DNA of 64,000 nt from Anaerolinea sp. Lineage in GTDB: Bacteria > Chloroflexota > Anaerolineae > Anaerolineales > Villigracilaceae. Location of the stretch: NCBI GenBank assembly GCA_020723805.1, contig DYID01000003.1:62001-126000 (forward strand), in the 5' to 3' direction. Position 1 is the first letter of the stretch, and every line of letters starts with the position of its first letter. The notes beneath the pieces are model-generated. The model saw nothing but the letters and a program-made list of their open reading frames with translations. It was not told the DNA's origin and made no database searches. The translations under genes were made by a program, and so were the position numbers. Below are positions 26,011-32,984 of this stretch, one piece after another.

Positions 26011-27705
26011 TTACCGTTTCAATGTCCTATATTTCACCCGATGCGGGGTCAAATCCTTGCCGAATTTCTCCCTCATCATCGCTTCGTAATCGGACCAGTT
26101 GCCGATGTACATCTTCGCAACGGAATCGCCCTCAAACACAATCAGGTGGGTGCAGATGCGGTCGAGGAACCAGCGGTCGTGAGAGACGACGAGGGCGGTG
26201 CCTGCAAATTCTTCGAGGGCTTCTTCGAGGGCGCGCAGGGTGTTCACGTCGAGGTCGTTGGTGGGTTCGTCGAGCAGGATGACGTTTGCGCCTTCGGTGA
26301 GGGTCTTGGCGAGGTGGACGCGGTTGCGCTCGCCGCCTGAAAGCACGCCGACTTTCTTCTGCTGGTCTGCGCCGAGGAAGTTGAACGAGGCGCAGTAGGC
26401 GCGGGCGTTGATTTTGCGCTTGCCGAGTTCCAGCGTTTCCTGTCCCTGCGCGATTTCTTCATAGACGGTCTTTTCGGAGTCGAGCGTGCGCGATTGGTCG
26501 GCGTAGGCGAGTTTGACTGTCTCGCCGATTTTGATCGTGCCGCTGTCGGGCGTCTCTTTGCCGACGATCATCTTCAGTAGGGTGGTCTTGCCCGCGCCGT
26601 TCGGACCCACTATCCCGACGATGGCGCCTGGGGGAACGGAAGCCGTAAAACGGTCCAGAATGAGGCGGTCTTCCCCTCCTCCGTCGGGGCTAGCGTAAGA
26701 CTTCGTCACATTGTCAAACTCAATCACCACGTCGCCGAGACGCGGACCAGGCGGGATGTAAATCTCCAAATCTTCGCGGCGTTTCTCGGTCTCCTGCGAG
26801 AGCAGTTTTTCGTAGGCGGCGACGCGCGCCTGTCCCTTCGCCTGACGCGCTTTGGGCGACATGCGAATCCATTCGAGTTCGCGCTCCAGCGTCTTCTGCC
26901 GCTTCGATTCGGATTTCTCTTCGAGGCGGATGCGCTCCTGCTTTTGTTCGAGCCACGAGGAGTAGTTGCCCTTCCAGGGGATGCCGTAGCCGCGGTCGAG
27001 TTCGAGAATCCAGCCCGCGACGTTGTCGAGGAAGTAGCGGTCGTGCGTGACGGCGATGACCGTGCCTTTGTACTCGCGCAGATGATGTTCGAGCCACGCC
27101 ACGGACTCGGCGTCGAGGTGGTTGGTGGGTTCGTCGAGCAGGAGAATGTCGGGTTCGGTGAGCAGGAGGCGGGTGAGGGCGACGCGGCGCTTTTCTCCGC
27201 CCGAACAAATTTTGATGGGCGTATCGGCTGGCGGACAGCGCAGCGCGTCCATCGCCAGTTCGAGGCGGCTGTCGAGATTCCAGGCGTCGTGCTTGTCGAG
27301 TTCTTCCTGCAATTTGGCTTGCTCGGCGACGAGCGCGTCGAAGTCCGCGTCGGGTTCGGCGAACCTGGCGTTGACTTCATCGAAGCGGGCGAGCATATCC
27401 ACGATGGGCTGTACCGCTTCTTTCACGACCTCGAGGACGGTTTTCGTTTCATCGAGTTTTGGCTCCTGCTCCAGCAAGCCGACGGTGTAGCCCTTGCTCA
27501 TGGAGATTTCACCGACGTAGTCTTTGTCCACGCCCGCCATGATGCGCAGAAGCGTGGACTTGCCCGCGCCGTTCAGTCCCAGCACGCCGATTTTTGCGCC
27601 GTAGTAGAAGCCGAGGGAGATGTCGCGCAGGATTTGTTTGTTGGGAGGGACGATTCTGCCGACCCGATTCATTGAATATATAACTTGTGTGGTTTCGTTG
27701 CTCAT
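26011..27705 (-). CDS. ettA: Energy-dependent translational throttle protein EttA (ABC-F)
   Basis: A 564-residue soluble protein with two ABC domains. Domain 1 has Walker A GLNGAGKST, signature SGGEKRRVAL and LLDEPTNHLDAES. Domain 2 has GPNGAGKTT, SGGERNRVHL and LLDEPTNDLDVNT. The basic linker between them (KSESKRQKTLERELEWIRMSPK) is the P-site tRNA interaction motif of ABC-F proteins. EttA binds the ribosomal E site and gates the first peptide bond according to ATP/ADP. There are no membrane segments. Length fits EttA (about 555). A partial duplicate of its 3' end lies downstream. Confidence 0.95.
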   Translation of the reverse strand: MSNETTQVIYSMNRVGRIVPPNKQILRDISLGFYYGAKIGVLGLNGAGKSTLLRIMAGVDKDYVGEISMSKGYTVGLLEQEPKLDETKTVLEVVKEAVQPIVDMLARFDEVNARFAEPDADFDALVAEQAKLQEELDKHDAWNLDSRLELAMDALRCPPADTPIKICSGGEKRRVALTRLLLTEPDILLLDEPTNHLDAESVAWLEHHLREYKGTVIAVTHDRYFLDNVAGWILELDRGYGIPWKGNYSSWLEQKQERIRLEEKSESKRQKTLERELEWIRMSPKARQAKGQARVAAYEKLLSQETEKRREDLEIYIPPGPRLGDVVIEFDNVTKSYASPDGGGEDRLILDRFTASVPPGAIVGIVGPNGAGKTTLLKMIVGKETPDSGTIKIGETVKLAYADQSRTLDSEKTVYEEIAQGQETLELGKRKINARAYCASFNFLGADQQKKVGVLSGGERNRVHLAKTLTEGANVILLDEPTNDLDVNTLRALEEALEEFAGTALVVSHDRWFLDRICTHLIVFEGDSVAKMYIGNWSDYEAMMREKFGKDLTPHRVKYRTLKR

Positions 27706-27934: not shown

Positions 27935-28165
27935 ATGGAAACTTACGCAACTGTAAAAGGTCAAATTGTCATTCCCGCGACGCTACGGCGGAAATACGGG
28001 ATTAAGAACGGCACAAAGATTATCGTCACTGACATGGGCGATGCGATTGTCTTGAAACCTGTGACCGAACAATATCTCAAAAGCCTGCAAGGTTCGCTCA
28101 AAGGCAAGGGCGGGCTGAAAACGCTGATGGATGAACGCCGCAAGGATAAGGAAAGGGAAAAATAA
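27935..28165 (+). CDS. vapB: AbrB/SpoVT-type antitoxin VapB
   Basis: A 76-residue protein. Residues 3-46 form an AbrB/SpoVT swapped-hairpin DNA-binding domain (YATVKGQIVIPATLRRKYGIKNGTK). The Lys-rich C-terminus (LKTLMDERRKDKEREK) is the usual disordered toxin-neutralising tail. The start follows AAGGAG. It precedes the PIN-domain gene by two bases. Together they should form a complex that represses the promoter at 27880-27908. Confidence 0.88.
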   Translation: METYATVKGQIVIPATLRRKYGIKNGTKIIVTDMGDAIVLKPVTEQYLKSLQGSLKGKGGLKTLMDERRKDKEREK

Positions 28166-28167
28166 AC

Positions 28168-28566
28168 ATGGCGACCAAAGTTCTTGACTCGTATGCGTTG
28201 ATGGCTTTCTTTGAAGACGAGCCGGGCGCGGACTTCGTGAGGGGGCTGATTCACAAAGCCGTGGAAGGCGACACAAGCCTGCTGATGACCGTCGTCAATT
28301 TGGGGGAGGTCTGGTATGCCATTGCCCGCACCAACTCCCCTGAGATTGCAGACCAGTATATTCACGAAATCAAGGGAATGGGGATTGAAATTGTGGAGGC
28401 GGACTGGAATCTCACCCGTCAAGCCGCCCTGTTCAAGGCAAACGGGAATATTTCATACGCTGATTGTTTTGCGGCGGCGTTGGCGAAGATCAAGAAGGCG
28501 GAGTTGGTGACGGGGGATAAGGAGTTCAAGTCGTTGGAAGGGGAGATTAAGATTGCGTGGGTGTAA
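28168..28566 (+). CDS. vapC: PIN-domain ribonuclease toxin VapC
   Basis: A 132-residue PIN domain with the complete acidic active site: D7 (KVLDSYAL), E47 (NLGEVWY), D99 (SYADCFAA) and D117 (TGDKEF). VapC toxins cleave tRNA or rRNA when the antitoxin is degraded. It is the second gene of the vapBC operon and converges with the HerA gene, whose stop is 80 bases away. It forms the left edge of the AT-richer accessory block. Confidence 0.92.
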   Translation: MATKVLDSYALMAFFEDEPGADFVRGLIHKAVEGDTSLLMTVVNLGEVWYAIARTNSPEIADQYIHEIKGMGIEIVEADWNLTRQAALFKANGNISYADCFAAALAKIKKAELVTGDKEFKSLEGEIKIAWV

Positions 28567-28645: not shown

Positions 28646-30421
28646 TCAAAGCATTCTGCCCTGTATTATCAGACCATTTAATTTAGTGAAATCTTCAATA
28701 TCACTAAAGGCATTGAAGAACAGGGGCGTCCCCGCAAATGAGAGTGGCGAAACGGGACCAATGGTCATAAAGGAATATTCTCGACTAGCTGTGTCAAAAG
28801 ATGAGTGTGGGTCACGGAATTGTTGATAGAGTTTCAGATATTCTCCTTTGCCGCCTACCAATTCCTGCAATTTCCTGAACTCCGTTCCCATGCTCAAACC
28901 AAAACCAAAGAATGAAATACGCAATTGCTGGACAATTTCATTATCCAGACTGGACAGAGTCTGACTTAAAAACATCCAACCCAAGCCATATTTGCGCGTT
29001 GTGCGAACAGCGTCTACCAGATTGCGTTTGATACGTTGTTTACGCTCATTGTTGTCGCGTTCTTGTGGGGCAAAGCGATGGGCTTCATCCAATACAACAA
29101 GGGTATTGAGGCTTTTTTCTCCTTGATAAGCGTATTCAGCCTCTCGAATTAGAACACCCAGGAAAGCGTCTATCAGGAGTGGTTTGATTTTGTCATCCCA
29201 CACTCCTGTTGAAATTCCGCTTGGTCGTTTGGAAAGGTCAACCACAATGACAGGGCGGCTATTGTTGCTAAAAGTGATTAGAGCTTTCTTGACAATTGTC
29301 TCGATTGAACTTTTACCGCCTGTTTCAGCGAAGAATTTTGCGACATTATGCCATTTCTCTTTAACGGCTACATACTGACCGTCCTTCGATTTCTGAATCG
29401 TCTCTTGGATAAATCCTTGTACTCGTTCAATGCCCGCTCCGCCGCTGTAAATGCGATGAACGTTTTGGTGCAAGTGAGATAATGCCGAAAGTAACGCATC
29501 ATCATCAATCGCGGATAATTTGTGTTTTTTGCTCTCACGAAAATAGTCGGTTAAGTATGCGGCGGCAACATTTTGGTAATCAGCCGCTTTGATGCCTAAA
29601 TCAAAAAAGAAGCCAAATTCAGTTAGCAATTCGGTGAATAGTTCCCACGAGTCCAGCCTAAACTTGTCCAGATTATAAACTTCGACAGTTCTTCCCCTCC
29701 CTTTAACCAGTGTAGGATGCAAAATTCTTCCTATTGTAGGAGCGGGTTGGGTATTTTGCAAATCAAGAGAGAATTCCCCTTGTGGATCGAGAACAAACAA
29801 TCCCATTTTTTTATGACGCATGTACGCCAGTAAAATCATCTTTGCCAATACTGATTTACCAGAACCAGTTTTTCCAAAGATACCGAGATGATAGGCTTCA
29901 CCCGCTCCGTCTGGGCCACTATCAAAATGCTTGAACCACAATGGCAATTTAGGCTTGGAACCGTACACATGACCAAGATAGAACAGCTGTGATTGATACG
30001 GCGAGAGTAATTCTTTCAAGATGTCGTCGTCGGCAAGGTAAATCGGCGTGCCAGTGGCAGGGACAGTACCGAGAATGCTAGGGCGATAGTTGCCATTTTC
30101 GTTAGCGAATACTGCGCTAATTATCATCTGTCCCTGATGTGTATCCTGTCGTTCGCTAATGGAATCAACTCGCCCACGTTGACGAATCAGGCTTCGCATG
30201 GTTGGGTCTTCATGCCAAATGTTGCGCAAGGTAATTTCAGTAATTTGACCCAGCGCGTAATTGGTATAGGCGTCCTGGCTATATGGGAAAAAGGCTAATT
30301 CACCAACCAGTTTTTTGTTCACTGCGCTCGCCATAATGTCGAGCGCAAGTTCGTTGGTTGACGAGGGAGACCCAATTACGCCGATGCGCTCGGCTTTGGC
30401 AACAAGTTGCTCCAATGTCAT
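28646..30421 (-). CDS. herA: HerA-family hexameric ATPase/translocase
   Basis: A 591-residue P-loop ATPase. An N-terminal beta-barrel-like (HAS) region occupies about residues 1-130. Walker A is GKTGSGKS (183-190). LDPQGEFS follows (211-218). Walker B is LVVLDEAHR (441-449), with sensor FLSQTLSSLD (484-493) and an Arg-rich segment VRTTRKYG near 472-479 suited to an arginine finger. HerA pumps double-stranded DNA and partners with the nuclease NurA, here immediately upstream (three bases between stop and start). The bacterial context next to DUF4338 and toxin-antitoxin pairs suggests a defence role (inference). Base composition is visibly richer in A+T than the flanks. Confidence 0.9.
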   Translation of the reverse strand: MTLEQLVAKAERIGVIGSPSSTNELALDIMASAVNKKLVGELAFFPYSQDAYTNYALGQITEITLRNIWHEDPTMRSLIRQRGRVDSISERQDTHQGQMIISAVFANENGNYRPSILGTVPATGTPIYLADDDILKELLSPYQSQLFYLGHVYGSKPKLPLWFKHFDSGPDGAGEAYHLGIFGKTGSGKSVLAKMILLAYMRHKKMGLFVLDPQGEFSLDLQNTQPAPTIGRILHPTLVKGRGRTVEVYNLDKFRLDSWELFTELLTEFGFFFDLGIKAADYQNVAAAYLTDYFRESKKHKLSAIDDDALLSALSHLHQNVHRIYSGGAGIERVQGFIQETIQKSKDGQYVAVKEKWHNVAKFFAETGGKSSIETIVKKALITFSNNSRPVIVVDLSKRPSGISTGVWDDKIKPLLIDAFLGVLIREAEYAYQGEKSLNTLVVLDEAHRFAPQERDNNERKQRIKRNLVDAVRTTRKYGLGWMFLSQTLSSLDNEIVQQLRISFFGFGLSMGTEFRKLQELVGGKGEYLKLYQQFRDPHSSFDTASREYSFMTIGPVSPLSFAGTPLFFNAFSDIEDFTKLNGLIIQGRML

Positions 30422-30424
30422 GTT

Positions 30425-31573
30425 TTATGCTCCTGTTTCTGTACGGTAGCCGTGTAGACTCATGAAAACTTCCCCAATATTGCCCTCGTAATTTTCAGCC
30501 AAATTTTGGCTGGCAATTTGACGAAAAACGGGTATGGAACGCGCCAGATGCTTAACCATGCGGTCAGCCATGTAAAGCGGAAACGGTTCCATGATAGCTG
30601 TTGCCTGACATTGGTGTTCGATACCTTTGAGAACAATACTCAAACGGGATGGATTGTCTGCTATTGATTGCGCCAATTCTAGCCGCAGTGCTGGCCACCA
30701 CTGGACAGGGCGGTAGTAGACGACTTTAACCCCGTTCAAAAGTTTAATAATTTCATCCACCACCTTTTTTGCTTGTTCCTTACTTTCCTTGATGGGAGAA
30801 AGACTGATATGCCATGGGGTTTCAGGCGGTGTCAAAGACATAGGACGGGTATATTCACCTGGTTCCATAACTAGGCTTAGGATTCCCCGATCCTCATAAG
30901 CGCTGTGCCAGCCTGCTAATTCGCCAATTTCGCGTTTGGTTGTATATTTTGGCATTGCCACCCAAAAATGATCAGAACGTGTGGATTGTAAAATTATGCG
31001 ATAGGCATCCAAATAAGCCAGGACAGCTTCGAGTAAATATTTACTCACACGTAGATGAGATGCTTCGGCTACTTTACTCAGCGCTTGGTTGAAGAAGATG
31101 GTTGGCGTGGTTAGGGAACCATCCAAAAAGACAACCTCATGAGGAGCATCTTTTGCCAGCTGCATTTCATTGCCCACCATGATACTCTGTAATATTGAAC
31201 CAGTGTCGGCATGATGGATTTCTGTATTGACATAAACTAAATGACGCGGTTCAGGCCAATAACGTGCTTCGGATGGTGGTGTCAAACCCTCGACGGCTAC
31301 CGCTCCGACTGCCACCAGGTCTAATGCGAGTAAACGTTCAATCGCCATACTTCCGTCTACACCACATGTTGTAGGGGTATTGACAAAAGGGAGGGCGGCT
31401 TGCTTTTGGATTAAATCTTTCCTGAATAGTTCACTCCGCCAAGTTTCTTTCTTGGCTCTTAAATCACCAAAAGCAGAAAGCAATCGCTGGCTGACATCTT
31501 TGGTTTGTGTCAAAACTTCATCCACCAGCGCGGCAGGCAACTCGGCAAAGGGAGTGTTATTTACTTCAGGCAT
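30425..31573 (-). CDS. nurA: NurA-domain nuclease
   Basis: A 382-residue protein. The NurA core shows CGVDGSM (D73) and VVFLDGSLTT (D151), the two Asp motifs that bind Mn2+ in 5'-3' exonucleases of this family, and a C-terminal Arg/His-containing stretch (RMVKHLARSIPVFRQIA). A TTG codon 12 bases upstream is in frame, but ATG 31573 is preferred. NurA works on DNA fed through HerA. The gene lies between DUF4338 (112 bases upstream) and herA (directly downstream), so nurA and herA are certainly cotranscribed. Confidence 0.85.
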   Translation of the reverse strand: MPEVNNTPFAELPAALVDEVLTQTKDVSQRLLSAFGDLRAKKETWRSELFRKDLIQKQAALPFVNTPTTCGVDGSMAIERLLALDLVAVGAVAVEGLTPPSEARYWPEPRHLVYVNTEIHHADTGSILQSIMVGNEMQLAKDAPHEVVFLDGSLTTPTIFFNQALSKVAEASHLRVSKYLLEAVLAYLDAYRIILQSTRSDHFWVAMPKYTTKREIGELAGWHSAYEDRGILSLVMEPGEYTRPMSLTPPETPWHISLSPIKESKEQAKKVVDEIIKLLNGVKVVYYRPVQWWPALRLELAQSIADNPSRLSIVLKGIEHQCQATAIMEPFPLYMADRMVKHLARSIPVFRQIASQNLAENYEGNIGEVFMSLHGYRTETGA

Positions 31574-31697
31574 GTTCAGTTTCAATAAGGGGCGTGATGT
31601 CTATAGGAGTTTTTTGTTTACTCTAACGATGCCAACCAACTCGTTTGGTAGACAACATAATTGTCATTTGAAGATTCGAGTGACTGAATGAGAAGAA

Positions 31698-32612
31698 TCA
31701 TTGTTGCTCCATTTCGCTTCTAGAACTCAAAACCTTCATTAACATTGAGCGAACCTCGTTGCTTAATCCATAAAGATATATTTTCTTGGGCTCTTGGCTA
31801 TTTCGATATGACATTCCACTCTTTGCATAGCCTTTCGTTATACCTATTTCCTGCCAGTTTGCCGCTTTGTAACTTGTTCCCAAATATCTCGACGGTTGGA
31901 CAAAAGTCTCTGCGACTAATGGGGTAATTGAATAATACCAAGCCCAATCGGAAACTACCTTAACTGTTGACAGAGAAAGGATTTTTGAAGCAAGATTTTT
32001 CACTTTTACTGTCGGCAAAATCAAAAATCGGCTGTTATTGATCACTTTATTCAAGATGTCTTCGCGGGTAAAACCCAATTTCTGGAGTATCTGATTTCTT
32101 GGGCTAAGATTCCAAGCAGGTGACGAATAGGCAATAGCACCCAGAATGACATTTTCAGAAACGATTAGATATTTGAGAGTACGTCCAACTATAACCTTGT
32201 GGCCCAAGTAGTGGTATTGCTCAACCAGGTAATTCCAGATTTGTTCTTCCTTGTTGCCCTTTGCCAAAACAAAATCAATCGAGACTGGAATTTCAGTTAC
32301 TTCGCTTGGAATAATATATTTTCCAAGTTTAGGTTCTTGGGCATTGTTTTCTTTCTTAGTTTTTCTCTTTACTTTTGGTTCAGGCAACTTAATTACCCCC
32401 ATTTTTTCCAACTGCACCAAAGCATCGCGACAAGCTCTGTCTTTTAGCCAGCCATTTGGTTGTTTCCAGTCTAGCCTTTTACAAACTTCTTTTGAGATTC
32501 GAGTTCTTCCAAACTTATAGTATTTCTTTACACATGATTTAACCACACCTATTGAAGATGCTGTGAATTTTCTCCCACGCAGCGTAAATGATGTAGTAAT
32601 CTCTGGTTTCAT
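31698..32612 (-). CDS. DUF4338 protein, DruA-like
   Basis: A 304-residue protein matching the DUF4338 family, whose members include DruA of the Druantia anti-phage system. Typical blocks are KEVCKRLDWKQPNGWLKDRACRDALVQL at the N-terminus, QYHYLGHKVIVGRTLKYLI, NNSRFLILPTVKVKNLASKILSL, ETFVQPSRYLGTSYKAANW and PKKIYLYGL at the C-terminus. ATG 32612 fits the family, and the longer frame runs into the promoter. The molecular function of the family is unknown. It is the first gene of the DruA-NurA-HerA set. No DruB-DruE genes are present, so this is not a canonical Druantia locus. Confidence 0.85.
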   Translation of the reverse strand: MKPEITTSFTLRGRKFTASSIGVVKSCVKKYYKFGRTRISKEVCKRLDWKQPNGWLKDRACRDALVQLEKMGVIKLPEPKVKRKTKKENNAQEPKLGKYIIPSEVTEIPVSIDFVLAKGNKEEQIWNYLVEQYHYLGHKVIVGRTLKYLIVSENVILGAIAYSSPAWNLSPRNQILQKLGFTREDILNKVINNSRFLILPTVKVKNLASKILSLSTVKVVSDWAWYYSITPLVAETFVQPSRYLGTSYKAANWQEIGITKGYAKSGMSYRNSQEPKKIYLYGLSNEVRSMLMKVLSSRSEMEQQ

Positions 32613-32627
32613 AATCTCACTGTAGAA

Positions 32628-32656
32628 ATTATACCTGCATAATTTGCCAACTCCAA
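32628..32656 (-). promoter_or_regulatory. Promoter of the DUF4338-nurA-herA cluster
   Basis: On the minus strand, TTGGAG (32656-32651), a 17-base spacer and a perfect TATAAT (32633-32628) lie 16 bases before the DUF4338 ATG. The leader is very short and has only a weak Shine-Dalgarno (GTGAGA). Confidence 0.6.
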
Positions 32657-32659
32657 ACG

Positions 32660-32984
32660 TGAGAGGGAAGAGGGGAGGGAGGGGGAAGGACCTATCCCCC
32701 CCGCCCTTCCCCAAGGGGAAGTGGGCTGGTCAGTTGATGGCTGTGATGGTTTTCTGAGAGAGAGTTTTGGTAGAACATGGTTTTAGTTTCTCCCCCCTTG
32801 GGGTAGACGGGAGATGGGTTGGGTTTCCCCCTTTGTCCTTCGGACATCTTCCCCAAATGCGACAATGAAAATTTGGGATGATTATTGAGCAGTTGAATCG
32901 TCAGATTTGCCCACCGGGTGCTTCGCGAGGGGAGACTCGGCGATGGGCATTGTGTTTTTAACGAAAAAGTGGGCAATAAGATTG
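32660..32984. other. Non-coding stretch with C/T- and G/A-rich runs, probable dispersed element
   Basis: About 325 bases separate the DUF4338 promoter from the DUF4258 promoter. They hold polypurine/polypyrimidine runs (GGGAGGGAGGGGGAAGG at 32673), CCCCAAGGGGAAG (32710-32722) and CCCCTTGGGG (32797-32806), plus CCTTCGGAC (32838). Read on the minus strand, the conceptual peptide SPLPLGEGRGG resembles translations of intergenic repeats. I see no gene. It marks the right border of the AT-rich block. Confidence 0.45.

What the first reader, a model, noticed from the sequence alone, without database searches (positions are those of the whole stretch)
28646..32656. DUF4338(DruA)-NurA-HerA gene cluster: candidate undescribed defence system
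Seen: three minus-strand genes from one promoter, encoding a DUF4338 protein, a NurA-type nuclease with both Asp motifs and a HerA-type ATPase with intact Walker motifs. Base composition is AT-richer than the flanks, and vapBC and DUF4258/DUF2283 lie on either side. Known: DUF4338 is DruA of Druantia, which otherwise uses a large DruE helicase; HerA with nucleases or SIR2/DUF4297 proteins forms anti-phage systems; HerA-NurA is an end-resection pair in archaea. Inference: DruA-like recognition coupled to a HerA-NurA motor-nuclease instead of DruE would be a distinct system.
Basis: partly seen in the sequence, partly recalled or inferred. Interest (0 to 1): 0.8.

Follow-up and report, generated by a model that had tools for sequence, protein, structure and literature searches.

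The report
Mobile DruA-NurA-HerA candidate defence operon
This is a three-gene unit, found together in many unrelated bacteria, that probably marks a cell's own DNA with one protein and shreds unmarked invading DNA with the other two; in this genome the marking gene appears to have been swapped for a distant cousin.

Summary
In detail: a DUF4338 (DruA) gene, a NurA nuclease and a HerA ATPase lie in tandem on the minus strand. The key prediction, conserved adjacency, also holds. Of 72 relatives of this HerA found in sequenced genomes, 7 are cut by the contig start; 62 of the other 65 carry a DruA gene (one a fragment), nearly always directly upstream of NurA-HerA, over about 15 phyla. No held paper has DUF4338, HerA and NurA together, and no PADLOC model matches the NurAs tested.

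One surprise changes the reading. The window's own DruA is not the usual partner. It belongs to a distant, transposon-associated DUF4338 clade, and a decayed 3' end of the usual druA remains between it and nurA. The replacement is under purifying selection, so it looks like a natural module swap.

The DruA model is a GNAT fold whose best solved match is phage Mu Mom, a DNA-adenine modifier. NurA matches archaeal NurA and the TdpAB nuclease. My best explanation is a modification-and-restriction system: DruA marks self DNA and HerA-NurA destroys unmarked DNA. Trio and swap are shown; fold and site context are moderately supported; modification and defence are inferred.

The parts
28646..30421 (-). 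HerA-family hexameric DNA-translocase ATPase (591 aa), intact Walker A/B
   Evidence: Pfam DUF87 1.5e-14; motifs in 23 aligned sequences; nearest solved HerA-type chains incl. TdpA; dN/dS 0.045 vs L038
30425..31585 (-). NurA-family nuclease (386 aa; likely ATG at 31573), acidic residues D77/E140/D155 intact
   Evidence: AlphaFold2 model pLDDT 88.9; VIA Z 21.2 to S. solfataricus NurA, 14.0 to the nuclease chain of TdpAB; 47/47 invariant residues; dN/dS 0.048
31574..31641 (-). decayed 3'-end relic of the canonical druA gene that once preceded nurA
   Evidence: colinear 68-bp match to the druA 3' end of L106 (E 0.002) and a stronger match in the sister locus L038 8703-8831 vs L039 (E 1e-8); multiple alignment; a profile test of the L038 relic was negative
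31698..32612 (-). replacement DruA (DUF4338) of the transposon-associated clade, Mom-like GNAT fold with an N-terminal helical part (304 aa)
   Evidence: Pfam DruA 2.7e-32; tree; fold match to phage Mu Mom Z 8.7; dN/dS 0.115
27935..28566 (+). flanking VapB-like/PIN (VapBC-type) toxin-antitoxin pair, convergent with herA; not part of the unit
   Evidence: Pfam MazE_antitoxin 5.7e-10 and PIN 1.9e-18; not seen between herA and the ABC-F gene in L106
33004..33492 (+). flanking DUF4258 and DUF2283 genes; not part of the unit
   Evidence: Pfam 2.7e-10 and 2.4e-18
26011..27705 (-). ABC-F gene whose 5' side is a variable site carrying different defence genes in some relatives

Best explanation
This is one copy of a horizontally mobile three-gene anti-invader system, DruA-NurA-HerA, that works like a modification-and-restriction system. 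Proposed steps: (1) DruA, a Mom-like GNAT protein with an N-terminal helical (possibly DNA-binding) part, adds an acyl-type mark to bases of the cell's own DNA. (2) A HerA hexamer with a NurA dimer loads on DNA and translocates. DruA sets specificity and is exchangeable: in this lineage the usual DruA was replaced in place by a distant DUF4338, leaving a relic. Shown here: trio conservation, intact motor and nuclease motifs, the swap and its maintenance. Moderately supported: GNAT/Mom-like fold, defence-type site. Inferred: base modification, and attack on unmarked DNA.
For: Trio in 62 of 65 assessable loci; HerA tree of 55 rows in 15 labelled groups. In Chloroflexota, DruA occurs in 15 of 251 genomes: 8 canonical trio, 2 window type, 2 variant DruA+HerA operons, 1 beside a 1,820-aa ORF of DruE size (not scanned), 2 on short or cut contigs. 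DruA fold: best of 998 aligned chains is phage Mu Mom, Z 8.7, 147 residues, 3.7 A; Pfam Mom hit 1.6e-4, under its cut-off, in the nearest relative; shared GxxYxAxNxxxxG stretch. NurA fold and acidic residues intact; TdpAB, the effector of a phosphorothioate system (function recalled), is among the matches of both NurA and HerA. HerA and NurA trees track each other (Mantel r 0.93) while DruA is looser (0.44 and 0.53) and 2.5 times more diverged, as expected for a specificity module (59 loci). Purifying selection on all three genes. Same-site alternatives in relatives: AbiE, AbiL-like, TIR protein with an NTPase, type II MTase+REase, MTase+HerA, another NurA-HerA-DruA.
Against: No phage assay. 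The window DruA has Q239 where 8 of 10 clade members, and Mom (D139), have an acidic residue. PADLOC enrichment beside the trios is modest. Archaeal HerA-NurA is known in DNA-end processing, and T. kodakarensis NurA cut circular ssDNA but not circular dsDNA (PMC12977600, passages), so a loading or entry step is missing from the model.
Confidence: 0.45

Rival explanations
1. Defence without modification: DruA is a catalytically altered GNAT-fold DNA-binding sensor that recognises phage DNA or replication structures and loads HerA-NurA onto them; self is spared because the target structure is absent.
For: The N-terminal part is helical in the model; [quoted passage not shown] window Q239 departs from the acidic residue of relatives; the swap of a whole DruA fits exchange of a recogniser equally well.
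Against: Canonical DruA has a strongly conserved core, and the best structural match of the window DruA is a DNA-modifying enzyme.
Confidence: 0.3
2. Housekeeping or accessory DNA end processing (archaeal-type HerA-NurA repair), with DruA as an incidental partner.
For: NurA matches archaeal end-processing NurA in fold; related NurA-HerA pairs occur without a detected canonical DruA on Rhizobium and Euzebya plasmids.
Against: The family is patchy (7 of 151 genomes of the order have a close relative; other hits are short or weak) and scattered across phyla; another 589-aa frame with a short match around Walker A, perhaps a resident HerA, lies elsewhere in this genome (G000:C53, not examined further); DruA is present in 62 of 65 loci.
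Confidence: 0.12
3. In the window lineage the system is dead: a transposon-borne DUF4338 gene inserted into druA, and nurA-herA are passengers.
For: The window DruA falls in the transposon-associated clade (DDE domains in L123 and L126); a druA relic remains; the same-site copy L106 is broken by an internal deletion.
Against: No transposase gene in the ORF list around it and no bracketing inverted repeats; since the split from L038, dN/dS is 0.115 (DruA), 0.048 (NurA) and 0.045 (HerA) at dS 0.53-0.78, so all three have been kept working; the nearest relative L119 heads an operon with a HerA-like gene.
Confidence: 0.1

Closest known systems
TdpABC (hypercompact phosphorothioate modification-restriction; TdpAB structures 8wet/8wfd)
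   Same: HerA-type ATPase plus NurA-type nuclease as a two-protein effector: window NurA matches the TdpAB nuclease chain at Z 14.0, the HerA profile matches TdpA at 6.6e-12. Three genes, one of them proposed to modify DNA.
   Different: The third gene is a Mom-like GNAT (DruA), not the phosphorothioation enzyme TdpC (recalled); NurA here is closer to archaeal NurA (Z 17-21) than to the Tdp nuclease.
Druantia type I (DruABCDE)
   Same: Canonical trio DruA is the same family as Druantia DruA (PADLOC DruA1 8.9e-102 and 3.9e-106 in the two tested; joined in the tree at 0.999).
   Different: No DruE or DruB-D in the window and none recurrent at the trios; a NurA-HerA motor-nuclease takes their place. 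The window DruA is outside that clade.
HerA-SIR2, HerA-DUF4297 anti-phage pairs
   Same: HerA hexamer plus partner effector (recalled); weak PADLOC HerA matches.
   Different: Partner is a NurA nuclease plus DruA; HerA is far from the NCBIfam anti-phage HerA cut-offs (29 bits against 850).
Archaeal/Deinococcus HerA-NurA end-processing complex
   Same: Same two enzyme families, adjacent genes; NurA fold matches both.
   Different: Almost always with DruA (62 of 65 loci), patchy and mobile.
Phage Mu Mom and Mom-nuclease pairs of jumbo phages
   Same: GNAT fold; best structural match of window DruA; Mom fused to REase has been proposed as restriction-modification (PMC7824862, passages).
   Different: Only a weak sequence profile match to Mu Mom; paired with a motor-nuclease rather than an REase.
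HerA/FtsK capture systems, DndFGH, BRC (PMC10853773, PMC12839542)
   Same: HerA/FtsK motors combined with GNAT proteins; those authors call DUF4338 a GNAT domain and propose GNAT-based self marking (passages).
   Different: The word NurA does not occur in either main text; those systems carry DndF/G/H or BREX parts.

Membership tests
HerA-NurA motor-nuclease pair | HerA-type ATPase with intact Walker A and B | tested here: met
HerA-NurA motor-nuclease pair | NurA fold with conserved acidic residues | tested here: met
   Pfam alone is under the cut-off, but fold Z 21.2 and D77/E140/D155 invariant in 47/47; their role as active site is recalled
HerA-NurA motor-nuclease pair | physical NurA2-HerA6 complex | not testable with these tools
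   no complex prediction offered
Druantia type I | DruA (DUF4338) protein | tested here: met
   Pfam PF14236 2.7e-32; but no PADLOC DruA match for the window protein, unlike the canonical trio DruAs tested
Druantia type I | large DruE helicase and DruB-D genes | tested here: not met
   no ORF of that size and kind in window 24-38 kb; none recurrent among trio neighbours, where the next families occur in 3-5 loci, one of them a UvrD helicase
TdpABC | HerA-type TdpA and NurA-like nuclease TdpB | tested here: inconclusive
   profile and fold similarity, but archaeal NurA is closer
TdpABC | TdpC phosphorothioation enzyme in the operon | tested here: not met
   only DruA, NurA and HerA are found in most loci; TdpC identity recalled
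Mom family (GNAT DNA modifiers) | GNAT fold closest to Mom | tested here: inconclusive
   Mom ranks first, Z 8.7, other GNATs 8.0; Pfam Mom 21.9 bits, under cut-off 27.1, in relative L119 only
Mom family (GNAT DNA modifiers) | DNA base acylation | not testable with these tools
   needs LC-MS or nanopore data
Transposon-borne DUF4338 gene | belongs to the transposon-associated DUF4338 clade | tested here: met
   support 1.0; DDE domains in L123 and L126, transposase-type genes next to L120, L124 and L125; L121 and L122 rest on placement alone
Transposon-borne DUF4338 gene | adjacent transposase or terminal inverted repeats at the window copy | tested here: not met

The most novel reading that the evidence does not exclude
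DruA-NurA-HerA is an undescribed, widespread modification-restriction system in which a Mom-like GNAT writes a new self-mark on DNA and a HerA-NurA motor-nuclease reads its absence. DruA proteins are interchangeable specificity cassettes, with the window caught after a swap, and the same activity would explain the unknown role of DruA in Druantia type I.
Probability: 0.35. Interest if true: 0.88.

Novelty: new variant of a known kind. Interest (0 to 1): 0.72.

Why it matters
DruA has been part of a named defence system since 2018 (Doron et al., as cited in PMC13316683), and I know of no activity shown for it. A compact trio, present in cultured bacteria, in which DruA comes with a motor-nuclease of known structure, makes its role directly testable: look for a DruA-dependent DNA modification. 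If true it adds a new self-mark chemistry to bacterial immunity, unites HerA-NurA 'repair' enzymes with restriction, and gives a natural swap experiment on what DruA specifies.

Tried and rejected
Rejected first reading: one search found the window DruA only in its same-genus relative and suggested the trio was not conserved; clustering showed that a different gene fills the slot, and Pfam identified it as DruA too. A test that failed: a profile HMM of canonical DruA does not see the L038 relic above shuffled peptides (score -1.9; best of 1000 shuffles 3.5); the relic rests on pairwise matches to the closest relatives (protein E 1.2e-6, DNA E 1.3e-8) and on colinearity. L119's second gene could not be shown to be a NurA (hhalign probability 0.4), so I do not call L119 a proven trio. 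No inverted repeats bracket the window druA. IMG/VR scans with the window DruA, its L119 relative and the window HerA, which reach close relatives only, found nothing. PDB sequence searches gave no credible relative for NurA or DruA. PADLOC on nearest flanking genes: 74 matching models among 104 proteins against 2 among 104 control proteins. Of the 25 models shown of the 74, 19 are GajB (UvrD-type) models matching the same number of proteins (2), so the number of defence-like neighbours is small and is not given by the tool. The flank proteins come from all phyla, the controls only from ten stretches of ten Chloroflexota genomes, so they are not fully matched. Left out to keep the numbers equal: 5 of 109 flank proteins (from L037, L044, L096) and 2 of 106 controls. 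For the ABC-F site I scanned 10 proteins from 5 of 24 sites, picked because they looked like defence genes, so that is not an unbiased rate. The NurA dN/dS was wrong (frame error) and is replaced. Relatives of the window DruA are rare: 7 of 400 Chloroflexota genomes at E 1e-5. Literature searches. DUF4338 occurs in 3 held papers and no held paper has DUF4338, HerA and NurA together. Papers on TdpABC did not turn up; two looked up by id were not held. What I say of TdpABC, Druantia's discovery and Mom's residues is recalled where no call is cited.
Full report
1. What is there. The window holds three minus-strand genes: druA (31698-32612), nurA (30425-31585) and herA (28646-30421). Pfam calls DruA at 2.7e-32 and the HerA central domain at 1.5e-14; NurA is below its cut-off (18.6 of 21 bits). 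An AlphaFold2 model of NurA from 47 aligned sequences (pLDDT 88.9) matches Sulfolobus NurA at Z 21.2 over 301 residues and Thermococcus HerA-NurA at Z 20.9, and D77, E140 and D155 are invariant in 47 of 47. The block is AT-rich (43-47% G+C).

2. The trio is conserved. One scan of 84,980 genomes with the HerA gave 72 loci; it relies on exact short peptides, so it is a lower bound, and the window's own genome may be left out. NurA lies directly upstream of HerA almost throughout. Clustering the neighbours showed one more family, about 390 aa, directly upstream of NurA; the next most frequent families occur in only 3-5 of 69 loci. Pfam calls the new family DruA at 1e-73 to 1e-104 in the four members tested. 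Strict count: 72 loci; 7 cut at the contig start (L042, L053, L054, L060, L087, L095, L097). Of 65 left, 62 have this DruA: 59 by the script, plus L071 (ORFs overlap), L098 (fragment) and L100 (DruA downstream), seen. The exceptions are L038 (window type), L063 and L105. Some loci are near-copies; L038 is the same contig as L032. In an independent draw of 251 Chloroflexota genomes, 15 have DruA; 8 are canonical trios, 2 are the window type, 2 are variant operons with other HerA-like genes (L119; L157, with Pfam-confirmed NurA, HerA and DruA in another order), 1 sits by a 1,820-aa ORF of DruE size (not scanned), and 2 lie on short or cut contigs.

3. It moves. The HerA tree mixes phyla: Chloroflexota needs 8 changes of label, Bacillota 5, Pseudomonadota 3 (55 rows); binning errors in metagenome assemblies could account for some. 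In the window's order 7 of 151 genomes have a close relative; the other matches are short or weak, mostly around Walker A, among them a 589-aa frame elsewhere in this genome.

4. The window's DruA is a replacement. The canonical-DruA profile sees it only at E 0.007. In a 79-sequence tree it falls, with L119, in a ten-member clade (support 1.0) of transposon-associated DUF4338 proteins: L123 and L126 carry DDE-transposase domains, L120, L124 and L125 lie beside transposase-type genes (DUF4277 as such is recalled), L121 and L122 rest on placement. The 61 canonical trio DruAs and four Druantia-type DruAs form another clade (0.999). Close relatives by HerA, L039 (94%), L040 (88%) and L106 (93%), carry canonical DruA. 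L106 shares the window's ABC-F neighbour, so it is the same site. Between the new druA and nurA lies what is left of the canonical druA 3' end: in L038 a 54-aa ORF matching the L039 DruA C-terminus at E 1.2e-6 (44% over 45 aa) and DNA at E 1.3e-8; in the window 68 bp at E 0.002. A profile test of the L038 relic was negative. Since the window and L038 split, dN/dS is 0.115 for DruA, 0.048 for NurA and 0.045 for HerA, against 0.06-0.10 for three flanking genes. The replacement has been kept.

5. What DruA may do. Its model is moderate (pLDDT 64.8, pTM 0.49): N-terminal helices, then a GNAT-like core. Foldseek lists GNAT acetyltransferases, none below 0.001. Independently, Pfam's Mom family hits the L119 relative at 1.6e-4, under its cut-off, and hhalign places Mom's AGVVYQASNFDFIG against the window's LGTSYKAANWQEIG, at low probability (1.7%). 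Mom D139 aligns with an acidic residue in 8 of 10 clade members, but with Q239 in the window and L038. Published work calls DUF4338 a GNAT domain (PMC10853773, passages), proposes GNAT-based self marking with HerA/FtsK in BRC systems (PMC12839542, passages), and Mom plus nuclease as restriction-modification in jumbo phages (PMC7824862, passages).

6. Motor and nuclease. HerA's nearest solved relatives by profile include TdpA (6.6e-12) and several HerA proteins; NurA matches the TdpAB nuclease at Z 14.0. As I recall, TdpAB restricts DNA that lacks the TdpC mark. Replacing TdpC by a Mom-like GNAT gives the model proposed here. HerA and NurA trees track each other (Mantel r 0.93), DruA less (0.44, 0.53), with a median distance of 4.2 against 1.7 for HerA (59 loci): the pattern of a fixed effector with a fast, exchangeable specificity module. 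The T. kodakarensis authors think a direct end-resection role unlikely and suggest antiviral defence as a possibility (PMC12977600, passages).

7. Context. The 5' side of the ABC-F gene is a variable site: among 24 sites viewed, the window, L038 and L106 carry this trio, whole or broken, and L157 the variant NurA-HerA-DruA. PADLOC supports AbiE (L163), an AbiL-like pair (L165), a TIR protein (L182, beside an NTPase whose NACHT match is just under cut-off), a type II methylase with a nuclease (L168), and a methylase followed by a HerA (L170) among 10 hand-picked proteins. The other sites were not scanned, and several hold ordinary-looking genes. Flank enrichment around trios elsewhere is weaker.

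8. Verdict. Trio conservation and the DruA swap are shown. GNAT fold is likely, Mom kinship plausible. Anti-invader function is likely from mobility, site and kinship of the effector; the self-marking mechanism is inferred. No PADLOC 2.0.0 model matches the three NurAs tested (window, L050, L107), and my paper searches found no description of the trio in their listings; subscription papers and most preprints were not searchable.

Noticed in passing
window 26011-27705 (5' side), L157, L163, L165, L168, L170, L182: The 5' side of this ABC-F gene looks like a defence hotspot in the family, with different systems in different genomes.
   Followed up: partly
L170 4969-9139: A type II/orphan-type DNA methylase, a HerA-type ATPase (668 aa) and an unassigned 440-aa gene in a row at the same ABC-F site: possibly another mark-plus-motor system.
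   Followed up: partly
L119 6153-9841 (G289): A window-type DruA followed by an unassigned 353-aa gene and a HerA-like gene with a variant Walker A (GLASKTS): possible source of the swapped DruA.
   Followed up: partly
L157 8879-12843 (G062): A third DruA/NurA/HerA combination with gene order NurA-HerA-DruA; genes nearby resemble, by eye, the AbiE pair of L163 (not scanned).
   Followed up: partly
L106 9056-10672: A same-site relative with canonical druA whose nurA and herA are cut by an internal deletion: a dead copy.
   Followed up: yes
L076 4903-7662, L086 4901-7654, L075 2451-5201: A UvrD-type helicase of about 917 aa precedes the trio, overlapping the druA ORF in L076 and L086.
   Followed up: partly
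L101 11887-13623: A protein with a weak prokaryotic Argonaute match (1.3e-18) lies directly downstream of the trio.
   Followed up: no
L127, L128 (Rhizobium and Euzebya plasmids): NurA-HerA pairs of this wider family without a detected canonical DruA within 8 kb; two DNA methylases lie downstream of the Euzebya one.
   Followed up: no
L132 3639-10714 (haloarchaeal plasmid): A 705-aa protein with a DUF4338 domain, followed by two hypothetical genes and an annotated FtsK translocase, resembling DndFGH (recalled).
   Followed up: no
window 32706-32806: A short inverted repeat (13-nt arms) just upstream of druA, perhaps a small non-coding mobile element.
   Followed up: no
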